This document shows, piece after piece, positions 15,202 through 18,358 of a stretch of DNA of 64,000 nucleotides. The notes under the pieces were generated by a model, which had not been told where the DNA came from, searched no databases, and saw only the letters and a program-made list of their open reading frames with translations. Location of the stretch: positions 62,001 to 126,000 of the forward strand of contig QOPF01000001.1 of the NCBI GenBank assembly GCA_003331625.1. The letters are read 5' to 3'. The number at the start of each line of letters is the position of its first letter. The stretch's first letter is position 1. Made by a program: the position numbers and the translations under genes. The DNA comes from Gammaproteobacteria bacterium. GTDB taxonomy: Bacteria; Pseudomonadota; Gammaproteobacteria; Magnimaribacterales; AG-339-G14.

Positions 15202-15807
15202 ATGAAGGAAGCTTCTAATCCAATTCCTGCCGGTCGACTGCAAAGAGCGGCTTCAAGTCAAGAGACTTACATCTCTAAATTTCGTCAAGTACTTGCAAGG
15301 CATGGTCTAACCATGGCTTCGGTAGCGATTATTTGTCTTCTGTTACCATCCATTCAAACTGCCCTATTATCTTCACTGGATAATTTATTTAGAAATCCTT
15401 TGAAGTATCTTCTTTGGAGTTTGGTAGTTGCAACTTTTATCTTTGGGTTTCTGAAATATACGAAAAGAGAGATTGATCTGCGTCAATTATTTTGGATTGG
15501 GTATCTCTTCATGATTTCTGTAGTTGAAGAGATTGCATTCAGACTTTCTTTACCTCTATTAATTACATCAGATGTTACCGGTATCAGTTTCTTTTGGCTT
15601 GGAGCTATAGTTAGCAACCTTCTTTTTGCAACCATTCACTATTTCACTTTACGCTGGAAACTTAATGCCTGTATTTTCACTTTTCTAGGCGGAATGGGCT
15701 TTAGCAGAATGTTAGATACAACTGGAGACTTGACTGCCGTAATACTTTTGCATTGGGCGATAACTTTTCTAAATACTCCTTCGGCTCCAAATAGTTCTAT
15801 AAAATAA
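15202..15807 (+). CDS. CPBP-family intramembrane metalloprotease (CAAX protease/Abi)
   Basis: Membrane protein of the CPBP (Abi) family, related to eukaryotic Rce1 proteases. The 201 residues contain several membrane segments and the family motifs in order: EEIAFR (E109, E110, R114), a histidine in FATIHY (H146) and HWAITFLN (H184). The substrate is unknown; relatives work in prenyl-protein processing or bacteriocin immunity in other bacteria. It follows dapD by 19 nt and is probably co-transcribed with it. It is convergent with the HNH-HIT gene. Confidence 0.85.
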   Translation: MKEASNPIPAGRLQRAASSQETYISKFRQVLARHGLTMASVAIICLLLPSIQTALLSSLDNLFRNPLKYLLWSLVVATFIFGFLKYTKREIDLRQLFWIGYLFMISVVEEIAFRLSLPLLITSDVTGISFFWLGAIVSNLLFATIHYFTLRWKLNACIFTFLGGMGFSRMLDTTGDLTAVILLHWAITFLNTPSAPNSSIK

Positions 15808-15815
15808 AACTCTTT

Positions 15816-15840
15816 AAAATTAGAACTAGTAATTAGTTTT
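15816..15840. terminator. Weak bidirectional terminator-like hairpin
   Basis: AAAATTAG (15816-15823) can pair with TTAGTTTT (15833-15840), two pairs being wobble, in the 36-nt gap between two convergent genes. The arms end in A/T runs that give short U-tails in both directions. It is AT-rich and weak, so the call rests mainly on its position. Confidence 0.35.
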
Positions 15841-15843
15841 ATT

Positions 15844-16824
15844 TTAATATTCTTTCTTATCGGGTATCACTCCCCTTATGCCGCCTCTTGGATTATTTAT
15901 GTCTCCTTTCCTTCTTGGAATAAGATGTATGTGACAATGATAAATTGTTTGTCCTGCATCTTCACCGTTGTTCATCCCAACATTAAAGCCGGTTACATCT
16001 TTATCTCTTTTCATAATGAATTCCTTATGTTTAACCAGAAGATTGTTAAAAGAATTCAACTCAGGTTGGTATAGTCCGAAATAATCCTCTACATGTCTTT
16101 TTGGAATGAACAAAAGATGTCCATTAGTCACCGGATATTTATCCTTAACGACCATCATGAATTCATCCTCATCCAATATTCTTGACTGCGGCAGGTTACA
16201 AAAAACACAGTCTGACTTTCTATCGTTAAAGACATCTTCTTGGTATCGAAAATCAGTGTCGTCTTTATTCGATTTTTGAGCATTACACGTATAGCAAAGA
16301 GCTTGATAGTTAGATAATTCATTCTTACCTTTTTTTGTTCTAGGAATAATGTGATCCACTTCCAAGGCTTTCACTTCATTAGATACCCCACAAAGCTCGC
16401 ACTTTCCTTTAGCTCTTTTTAAAACTTCATAACGGTCACTTCCCGGAATTGATTTGTCAGCAATTTTTCTATGCTGCCACATTTTTTTTCCTCTTTGTTC
16501 TATGATATTTTGAATTTTTTCATCACAAATTTTTATGAGTTCTTTCTGTTCATCAGATGAGAGGCTATCAAAATCATTGAGAAAATATGTATCCCCTTCC
16601 TTGGATGTAACCTTATTTTTTGTTAATACCCTTCCAACCATGATCTTTGTTCTTTCTTGATAGTATTCAACCTGACTTACGTCATAGACTAATAAGTCTT
16701 TAGCAATTTTTTCTGAATCAGCTTTACCTTTGTTTACTATTAGATTTCTAATCATTACTGGTTGGTAAACATGAGACATTCTCATGTCTTTTATGAGGTA
16801 CTTTTTGAGCTTTTTGTAGTTCAT
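15844..16824 (-). CDS. HNH endonuclease-HIT domain fusion protein
   Basis: A 326-residue protein of unknown role made of three parts. Residues about 1-70 look like a helical or winged-helix segment (MRMSHVYQPVMIRNLI). Residues about 130-190 form a complete HNH nuclease finger: C142-x2-C145, DH at 157-158, N173, C177-x2-C180 and K184. Residues about 204-320 form a HIT domain with CVFC (206-209) and the triad HCHIHL (H296, H298, H300). HIT proteins hydrolyse or transfer nucleotides on nucleotide substrates; HNH proteins cut DNA. The joining suggests nucleic-acid end processing, repair or defence, but no partner gene reveals which. Confidence 0.88.
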   Translation of the reverse strand: MNYKKLKKYLIKDMRMSHVYQPVMIRNLIVNKGKADSEKIAKDLLVYDVSQVEYYQERTKIMVGRVLTKNKVTSKEGDTYFLNDFDSLSSDEQKELIKICDEKIQNIIEQRGKKMWQHRKIADKSIPGSDRYEVLKRAKGKCELCGVSNEVKALEVDHIIPRTKKGKNELSNYQALCYTCNAQKSNKDDTDFRYQEDVFNDRKSDCVFCNLPQSRILDEDEFMMVVKDKYPVTNGHLLFIPKRHVEDYFGLYQPELNSFNNLLVKHKEFIMKRDKDVTGFNVGMNNGEDAGQTIYHCHIHLIPRRKGDINNPRGGIRGVIPDKKEY

Positions 16825-16870
16825 TTTTTAGCAAGTCCTTTTTCTTAAGTTCTTTTTAAAAGACTTAATG

Positions 16871-18358
16871 TCATGATGAATTCAATTTGCCTTTAATAAA
16901 GAAAGAAAGAACTATTAAGACCGCGGCTAAGATCAAGTAGTAATAGATTAGCTCAGAAAATATTGGCGTCATGCTACTCAAACCGGACTCGGTTGCCTCT
17001 CCGCCAAATAATCCAGCAAGCACTCCGCCAAGAGAGGAAGCTAAAAACCACAAACCCATCATTTGACCAAGATATTTTTTTGGAGAGTATCTGGAAAATG
17101 CCGATAAACCAACTGGCGATAAAGCGAGTTCACCAAAGGTATGTAACAGGTAAGTTAAGAGCAACCACTGGACTCCTACCGGTGCTTCGACCATGGCGTA
17201 TTGCACAGCGTAGAGCATCACGATAAAGCCGAGCCCCATAAAAATTAAACCAATAGCAAATTTAATGGGCGTATTGGGATTTAAATTTCTTTTGCCTAAA
17301 AAGACCCAAAGATAAGCAAAGAACGGAGCAAACATCACCACAAAAAGTGGGTTTAAAAATTGCGTCCAACTGACAGGTGCTTGAAAAGAACCAAAAGTAA
17401 GATTCACATAATCTCTGGTAAAGATTGATAACGAGCCTGCCGACTGATCAAAGCCAGACCAAAAAGCGGCCGCTCCTACAAATAATAATAAAAGCATCAA
17501 AACGTTTTTCTTTTCAAAGCTCGTAAGGCCTGCAAAGAAAAACAAGTAGCCAAAATAGATAAACGAGATGACAACTAGAAAGTCACGAAAACGTTCGGCA
17601 AAAAATACTGGATCAATGCTCCAAAGCCCAAGAACACCTGAGATGACTACTGCAGCAAAAAATAAAACCGTAATAATAGTCCAAAGTCGCAAAGTGCTTC
17701 TGCGTCCTTCTCCCATCTCATTAGGATTTAAACCGGCAGTCCCAAGCTGACTTCGGAAATAAATAAATTGAATGACACCAAAGAGCATACCAATACCTGC
17801 AGCGCCAAAACCCCAATGCCAACCGATACGCTCGCCCAAGTAACCACAGATAGCAAAACCAAGCATGCTGCCAATATTGATAGACATGTAAAAAATAGTG
17901 AATCCAGAATCTCTGCGATCGTCATGATCTGCATATAGCTGCCCCACGATAGAGGAGATGTTAGGTTTTAAAAGTCCGGTACCAATGGCAACGAAAGCCA
18001 AGCCCAAAATAAAGGTTTCTTGCAACGGAATGGCTAAAGTAAAGTGACCCAGCATGATGATGAACGCACCATAAAGCACTGCCTTTTGATAACCCAATAA
18101 GTTATCTGCCAGCCAACCGCCTGGTAAGGCTAAAAAATAAACCATACCCGCATAAATTCCATATACAGCATTGGCTTCAACATTTGACCATCCTAATCCT
18201 GGATTGCCAACCACGCCGATTGTCATATAGAGAACTAATAAACCACGCATGCCGTAATAGGACATTCGCTCCCAGAGCTCAGTGAAAAATAATGTCCTTA
18301 AGCCAATGGGATGACCGAAGAAATTACTTTGTGATAGATTAGATTCTTTTTCAGACAT
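16871..18358 (-). CDS. Proton-dependent oligopeptide transporter (POT/PTR2 family)
   Basis: Inner-membrane symporter importing di- and tripeptides with protons. The 495-residue protein has about 14 hydrophobic segments and the ExxER proton-coupling motif in TELWERMSYYG (E27, E30, R31), followed by the PTR2 signature region FTIFYMSINIGSMLGF. The fit to DtpA/DtpB or related bacterial POTs is clear; the exact subfamily is not. Codons are richer in G and C than those of adjacent genes. It is divergent from the RDD gene with 3 nt between the two start codons. Confidence 0.94.
   Translation of the reverse strand: MSEKESNLSQSNFFGHPIGLRTLFFTELWERMSYYGMRGLLVLYMTIGVVGNPGLGWSNVEANAVYGIYAGMVYFLALPGGWLADNLLGYQKAVLYGAFIIMLGHFTLAIPLQETFILGLAFVAIGTGLLKPNISSIVGQLYADHDDRRDSGFTIFYMSINIGSMLGFAICGYLGERIGWHWGFGAAGIGMLFGVIQFIYFRSQLGTAGLNPNEMGEGRRSTLRLWTIITVLFFAAVVISGVLGLWSIDPVFFAERFRDFLVVISFIYFGYLFFFAGLTSFEKKNVLMLLLLFVGAAAFWSGFDQSAGSLSIFTRDYVNLTFGSFQAPVSWTQFLNPLFVVMFAPFFAYLWVFLGKRNLNPNTPIKFAIGLIFMGLGFIVMLYAVQYAMVEAPVGVQWLLLTYLLHTFGELALSPVGLSAFSRYSPKKYLGQMMGLWFLASSLGGVLAGLFGGEATESGLSSMTPIFSELIYYYLILAAVLIVLSFFIKGKLNSS

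What the first reader, a model, noticed from the sequence alone, without database searches (positions are those of the whole stretch)
15844..16824. HNH nuclease fused to a HIT nucleotide-hydrolase domain, with an unassigned N-terminal segment
One protein carries a complete HNH zinc finger and a complete HIT triad (H296, H298, H300). HNH cuts nucleic acid; HIT family members act on nucleotide-linked or adenylated substrates (aprataxin and Hint are examples). A nuclease plus an end- or nucleotide-processing enzyme could be a DNA repair or self-contained defence protein. The first ~70 residues match nothing I can name with certainty. It stands alone with no partner gene.
Basis: partly seen in the sequence, partly recalled or inferred. 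Interest (0 to 1): 0.65.

Follow-up and report, generated by a model that had tools for sequence, protein, structure and literature searches.

The report
Mobile nuclease fused to HIT hydrolase
This gene encodes one member of an apparently undescribed family of mobile, probably anti-phage enzymes in which a DNA-reading module, a DNA-cutting HNH module and a nucleotide-handling HIT module are joined; it matters because the same HIT type repeatedly turns up tied to DNA-cutting enzymes.

Summary
The 326-aa ORF at 15844-16824 (-) in a SAR86-type genome carries intact HNH and HIT domains. The "unassigned" N-terminus is a conserved domain, predicted to be a winged helix plus a long helix. It is not a one-off: about 19 non-identical homologues occur in scattered Pseudomonadota and in 14 viral/prophage contigs, with HNH and HIT catalytic residues invariant. 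It is an accessory, mobile gene: present in 2 of 40 genomes of its family, absent from 13 congeneric species syntenic at this locus (two have an empty ~21-bp gap), and under purifying selection (dN/dS about 0.06). Relatives sit beside recombinases, inside prophages, and once directly against a Pbe/Dnd-type defence locus. The same HIT subfamily also occurs as a separate gene touching HNH_4 nuclease genes (7 of 18 loci versus 0 of 25 for ordinary HinT) and fused to a PLD-helicase. Best reading: mobile restriction-like defence nucleases in which HNH cuts DNA chosen through the winged helix and HIT removes a nucleotide from an end, cofactor or signal. The defence role is inferred; the HIT substrate is unknown. 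Nine literature searches found no description.

The parts
15844..16824 (-). HNH-HIT gene, 326 aa (wHTH - HNH - HIT)
   Evidence: the whole ORF is the homologous unit shared with SAR86 AG-337-O23
16465..16824 (-). N-terminal conserved domain, residues 1-120: winged helix (1-89) plus long helix 90-120; motifs MRMSHVYQP and DxSQxEYY
   Evidence: AlphaFold2 model, mean pLDDT 82.5; conservation; best PDB fold neighbour a winged-helix DNA-binding protein, weak
16264..16401 (-). HNH nuclease domain, residues 142-187 (C142, C145, D157-H158, N172, C177, C180, N181)
   Evidence: Pfam PF01844 E 4e-12 and PF14279 1.6e-10; invariant in 14 homologues
15847..16215 (-). HIT domain, residues 204-326 (C206, C209, H236, Q292, H296, H298, H300, PRR), subfamily tail PRGGIRGVIPxKxxY
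   Evidence: Pfam PF01230 E 7e-16; PHROG 19494 E 7e-32; invariant triad
15925..15939 (-). histidine triad H296-C-H298-I-H300
   Evidence: sequence, alignment
15808..16870 (.). variable convergent gap between CPBP (15202-15807 +) and POT (16871-18358 -): a cassette site holding different small ORFs, or nothing, in sister species

Best explanation
A member of an apparently undescribed, horizontally mobile family of three-domain nucleases used in conflict between mobile elements or phages and their hosts, most likely as restriction-like defence cargo. The N-terminal winged helix is inferred to select DNA (sequence, structure or modification), by analogy with winged-helix/SBD-HNH modification-dependent restriction enzymes. 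The HNH domain is inferred to nick or cut that DNA. The HIT domain, whose nucleotide-transfer His298 is intact, is inferred to strip a nucleotide from a product or regulator: either 5'-adenylated ends left by DNA ligase, which would keep the cut unrepaired, or a nucleotide signal or cofactor that gates the nuclease. Shown here: domain content, conservation, purifying selection, mobility, and recurrent association of this HIT subfamily with nucleases. Inferred: the defence role, DNA as target, and the order of steps. The HIT substrate is open (about equal odds between ends and signal).
For: Fusion conserved at 48-90% identity over all three domains, catalytic residues invariant. Purifying selection in each domain. 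Sporadic: 2 of 74 genomes in one family, 2 other genomes of 368 Gammaproteobacteria, one of these a decayed remnant. Absent from 13 congeneric species syntenic at the site, two with an empty gap. Homology between the two SAR86 copies starts and ends at the ORF. Contexts: serine recombinase + DUF2924-type gene, or a resolvase, in 9 viral contigs; prophage terminase/methyltransferase or lysis/tail regions; tyrosine integrase in three loci. In G111 it abuts PbeA, PbeC and Orf5 homologues with a DndB-like gene on the other side. The same HIT subfamily is adjacent to HNH_4 genes of two or more unrelated groups, at 7 of 18 loci versus 0 of 25 HinT loci, p 0.001. An HNH+HIT pair moved alone between SAR86-family genera. 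A HIT-PLD-helicase fusion exists.
Against: No functional assay exists. PADLOC has no model that covers the protein. The window copy and the G065 copy lie in ordinary gene surroundings. Most free-standing viral HITs of this motif class (105 readable) have no HNH partner, form a separate clade, and mostly lack the first triad His. The winged-helix assignment rests on a model with 12 sequences and a weak PDB match. Viral-contig contexts are biased towards phage-like genes by the collection.
Confidence: 0.55

Rival explanations
1. A selfish or element-serving endonuclease: a free-standing homing-type HNH, or a phage enzyme for packaging or recombination, carried by prophages and integrative elements for their own transfer; HIT is an accessory end-processing domain.
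For: HNH genes near terminase are common in phages (general knowledge); here one homologue lies between a methyltransferase and the large terminase (L204), many lie next to recombinases, and HNH PHROG families match.
Against: Positions relative to phage genes differ between elements. The gene also occurs alone in chromosomes without any recombinase (window, G065) and in a defence island. No intron, intein or convincing flanking repeats at the window copy. HIT active site kept everywhere.
Confidence: 0.2
2. A DNA-repair enzyme: HNH opens damaged DNA and HIT removes 5'-AMP from stalled ligation ends, in the manner of aprataxin.
For: HIT enzymes act on adenylated substrates (general knowledge); intact triad and HNH metal site; DNA-binding-like N-terminus.
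Against: Sporadic, mobile, not core. HIT motif HxHxHLIPR and nearest structures are Hit/Fhit type. No aprataxin-type C-terminal zinc finger.
Confidence: 0.12
3. HIT is a nucleotide-signal switch: it hydrolyses an infection-related nucleotide (Ap4A, NAD-derived or cyclic) and so turns the nuclease on or off, as was hypothesised for ThsC in Thoeris type II. (This concerns HIT chemistry and overlaps with the defence reading.)
For: Hit/Fhit-like active site; a PADLOC HIT protein, ThsC, is assigned to a defence system (PMC8565338); the HIT also pairs with nucleases as a separate protein.
Against: No signal-synthase gene beside the window copy; ThsC similarity is weaker than to the general HIT family.
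Confidence: 0.25

Closest known systems
SBD-HNH / wHTH-HNH modification-dependent restriction endonucleases (ScoMcrA, SprMcrA, EcoWI; PMC7461809, PMC10853773)
   Same: winged-helix N-terminus plus an HNH of the McrA type; the HNH part of the profile matches ScoMcrA 5zmm at E 2e-5; found among accessory defence genes
   Different: N-terminal domain not detectably SBD by sequence; carries a HIT domain; modification dependence unknown
HIT hydrolases of the Hit/Fhit type (3imi, 1y23, FHIT)
   Same: fold, histidine triad, QT..H.H.H..PR signature
   Different: fused to HNH; extra C-terminal PRGGVRGVIPxKxxY motif; mobile rather than core
ThsC of Thoeris type II (PADLOC; PMC8565338)
   Same: a HIT protein assigned to a defence system
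   Different: no ThsA/ThsB beside it; weaker similarity (E 2e-10) than to the general HIT family; nuclease fusion
PLD-helicase proteins (PADLOC PLD_Helicase; PbeA)
   Same: relative L223 joins the same HIT subfamily to a PLD nuclease-helicase; L214 sits beside PbeA
   Different: no helicase or PLD in the window protein

Membership tests
HNH endonuclease superfamily | His-metal finger: [DE]H general base, Asn, second N/H, Cys4 zinc | tested here: met
   Pfam above cut-off; residues invariant in homologues
HIT superfamily | H-x-H-x-H catalytic triad in the HIT fold | tested here: met
   Pfam above cut-off, Foldseek to HIT structures, triad invariant
Aprataxin | C-terminal C2H2 zinc finger after HIT | tested here: not met
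   the protein ends 26 residues after the triad, no zinc finger
Aprataxin | hydrolysis of 5'-adenylated DNA ends | not testable with these tools
   needs biochemistry
SBD-HNH modification-dependent restriction enzyme | sulfur-binding (wHTH) domain N-terminal to HNH | tested here: inconclusive
   winged-helix fold predicted; no sequence match of the N-terminal profile to any Pfam family or to PDB chains including 5zmm; 5zmm not among the top 50 fold matches
SBD-HNH modification-dependent restriction enzyme | cleavage dependent on DNA modification | not testable with these tools
   needs biochemistry
Thoeris type II ThsC | HIT gene in operon with thsA and thsB | tested here: not met
   neighbours in the window are POT and CPBP membrane proteins
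Known PADLOC defence systems | a model that covers the protein | tested here: not met
   only partial HNH or HIT matches
Free-standing homing endonuclease | intron/intein or insertion into or next to a fixed target gene | tested here: not met
   varied positions, whole-ORF cassette in a convergent gap, no convincing repeats

The most novel reading that the evidence does not exclude
This HIT subfamily is a dedicated companion of nucleases in anti-phage defence: fused to or beside several unrelated nucleases (two or more HNH types, PLD-helicase), it strips nucleotides from ligase-adenylated ends or from a modified or signalling nucleotide, so that cleavage cannot be repaired or is triggered only by infection. 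That would be a new principle coupling nucleotide-transfer chemistry to restriction.
Probability: 0.25. Interest if true: 0.85.

Novelty: new variant of a known kind. Interest (0 to 1): 0.62.

Why it matters
If right, it defines a widely scattered but rare family of compact one-gene (or two-gene) mobile nucleases with a built-in nucleotide-handling domain, and turns the old question of what accessory HIT proteins do into a testable one: does HIT undo ligation, handle modified nucleotides, or sense an infection signal? It also shows that such cassettes reach streamlined ocean bacteria such as SAR86.

Tried and rejected
(1) 'Viral HIT genes are HNH partners': rejected. 120 viral contigs with the HIT tail motif show no HNH fusion, two (a duplicate pair) have an HNH nearby, and 101 of 105 readable copies lack the first triad His and form a separate clade. 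(2) Presence of the full fusion in E. coli or in the named plasmid and phage collections: not found. (3) N-terminal domain by sequence: no Pfam or PDB family. (4) Homology of the N-terminus with the N-termini of the separate HNH partners (TYKFAL motif): aligned at the expected place but not significant, E 0.12. (5) Test against an SBD Pfam model failed because the accession tried is not in the library. (6) The full-length AlphaFold model is poor outside the N-terminus and parts of HIT (pLDDT 69), so inter-domain geometry is not interpreted. (7) Literature: nine searches found no paper on an HNH-HIT fusion; PMC8565338 is the nearest, for HIT in defence. The held library is open-access only, so absence there is not proof of absence. 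(8) Own promoter, flanking repeats and own recombinase at the window copy: none convincing.

Full report
WHAT IS THERE. The ORF 15844-16824 (-) encodes 326 aa. Pfam finds HNH (142-187) and HIT (214-306), both above curated cut-offs. The window lies in a 1.09-Mb genome whose nearest named match is a SAR86 single-cell assembly, AG-337-O23, 90% protein identity. Homology between the two DNA loci begins and ends exactly at start and stop codon, with nothing else shared in the 17 kb of window compared. dS is 0.81 and dN 0.051, with omega 0.072, 0.050 and 0.046 for the N-terminal, HNH and HIT parts, so all three parts are maintained.

A FAMILY, NOT A CURIOSITY. A DNA pattern for the HIT tail (HxHLIPR...PxGGVR) hit 12 of 398 Pseudomonadota genomes. 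Five of these genomes, counting the window's own, carry complete three-domain fusions (L055 = window, L052, L061, L062, L064; the last genome has a second, N-terminally broken copy, L065), and one more has a partial remnant, L063. A second SAR86-family genome, G459, carries the AG-337-O23-type copy. A profile search of viral contigs gave 14 full or near-full fusions (L193-L206). Alignment of 14 proteins (A2) shows 48-90% identity to the window protein. Invariant residues include C142, C145, D157, H158, N172, C177, C180, N181 (HNH) and H236, Q292, H296, H298, H300, P303, R304 (HIT). The N-terminus is likewise conserved: M-R-M-S-H-[VI]-Y-Q-P and D-x-S-Q-x-E-Y-Y.

N-TERMINAL DOMAIN. No Pfam or PDB sequence match. 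AlphaFold2 on residues 1-126 (12 sequences) gives pLDDT 82.5 and the order H-H-E-H-H-E-E followed by one long helix, the layout of a winged helix plus stalk. Foldseek's best PDB hit is the winged-helix protein F93 of STIV (E 0.07, probability 0.97). Among predicted viral proteins the best are a DUF262 protein and an AAA ATPase of one siphovirus, TM 0.69-0.73 over the domain. DNA binding is therefore plausible but not shown.

ACCESSORY AND MOBILE. In the window's genus, 14 other genomes hold the POT gene that lies beside this locus. In 13 of them the CPBP neighbour is also in place, and none has the fusion gene. In two the POT and CPBP coding sequences are about 21 bp apart; the others carry different small ORFs. 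The gap is thus a cassette site. Elsewhere the fusion occurs in 2 of 74 genomes of one family and, by a strict N-terminal motif, in 2 other genomes among 368 Gammaproteobacteria. One of these (G611) is a remnant with an internal deletion; the other (G711) sits right after a tyrosine integrase. Other contexts: serine recombinase with DUF2924-type partner, or a resolvase, next to nine viral-contig copies; terminase/methyltransferase region (L204, L203); lysis and tail genes (L193, L196); tyrosine integrase (L033, L212). In G111 (L214) the gene starts 3 bp from a PbeA homologue, in a block with a PbeC-like ATPase and Orf5 (DUF262), with a DndB-like gene on the other side (PADLOC E 7e-195, 2e-24, 5e-212, 2e-15). 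PbeABCD is an experimentally supported antiviral module (PMC6459918), and PMC10853773 lists wHTH-containing HNH and GIY-YIG nucleases among the genes that gather around such loci. A small downstream gene with a GIY-YIG-like motif follows several copies; only the one in L199 is confirmed by Pfam. Gene names in these loci that carry no family-search citation are my reading of the translated sequences.

THE SAME HIT WITH OTHER NUCLEASES. The window protein's HIT belongs to a subfamily with the tail PRGGVRxVIPxKxxY (PHROG 19494, function unknown). As a separate gene it directly adjoins HNH_4-type genes in SAR86-family relatives G001, G027 and G023 and on plasmids of Polaromonas, Aromatoleum, Hymenobacter and Persicobacter. 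The HNH partners form at least two unrelated groups with opposite gene order. Counting by HMM, 7 of 18 such loci have the HNH next door, against 0 of 25 ordinary HinT loci (one-sided p 0.001). The HMM for partners was built from these partners, but Pfam independently detects HNH_4 in them (one, in L045, just below its cut-off). Between G001 and G027, which are different genera, a 1.4-kb block at 91% identity contains just the HNH+HIT pair. In G260 the HIT is fused to a PLD nuclease-helicase (PLD and helicase read from sequence). In the HIT tree these partners fall in several places, so the association was probably formed or reshuffled more than once; supports are moderate.

LIMITS. The free-standing phage HITs with the same tail are a different matter: 120 contigs, a long-branch clade, first triad His replaced by Tyr or Trp in 100 of 105 readable cases, and no HNH coupling. 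No model in the defence-system database covers the fusion. Nothing here tests catalysis.

HOW IT MOST LIKELY WORKS. Winged helix picks DNA (inferred), HNH cuts (inferred from intact residues), HIT removes a nucleotide through a His298 adduct (chemistry of the family, established knowledge) from either ligase-adenylated ends or a regulatory nucleotide (inferred, undecided). The mobile distribution and one clear defence island favour use against phages or rival elements (confidence about 0.55) over a selfish/packaging role (0.2) or repair (0.12). The signal-switch rival concerns HIT chemistry and overlaps with the defence reading.

STATUS. It works like a compact restriction nuclease related in layout to wHTH/SBD-HNH enzymes, but membership in that family is inconclusive. 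It is a true member of the HNH and HIT superfamilies and of no named system. Rated a new variant of a known kind.

Noticed in passing
viral contigs L071-L190: Free-standing phage HIT proteins with the GGVR tail are abundant (scan stopped at 120) and replace the first His of the triad by Tyr (72) or Trp (28) in 105 readable cases, keeping the middle His; a distinct phage HIT clade of unknown function.
   Followed up: partly
window 15808-16870 and L226-L239: The convergent gap between the POT and CPBP genes is a hypervariable cassette site in this SAR86 genus: empty in two species, different short ORFs in the others, without recombinase or clear repeats.
   Followed up: partly
L219 7122-8509 and L220 7871-9258: A two-gene HNH+HIT cassette, 91% identical over just the two genes, sits in unrelated surroundings in two SAR86-family genera. 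In L219 and L222 the HNH/HIT genes lie downstream of a glmS-like gene, an apparent integration hot spot.
   Followed up: partly
L223 4367-7945 (-): A 1192-aa protein joins the same HIT subfamily to a PLD nuclease, a DEAD/DEAH helicase and a long C-terminal region; a candidate defence protein.
   Followed up: no
L006/L070; L045 9850-13137: Nucleotide pyrophosphohydrolase genes (MazG-like; (deoxy)NTP type) occur near some of these HIT genes, hinting at nucleotide clean-up as a theme.
   Followed up: no
L050 (Streptomyces phage phiSASD1 gp3-gp4): The phage HIT gene gp4, with intact triad, follows a PAPS-reductase-like (AANH) gene.
   Followed up: no
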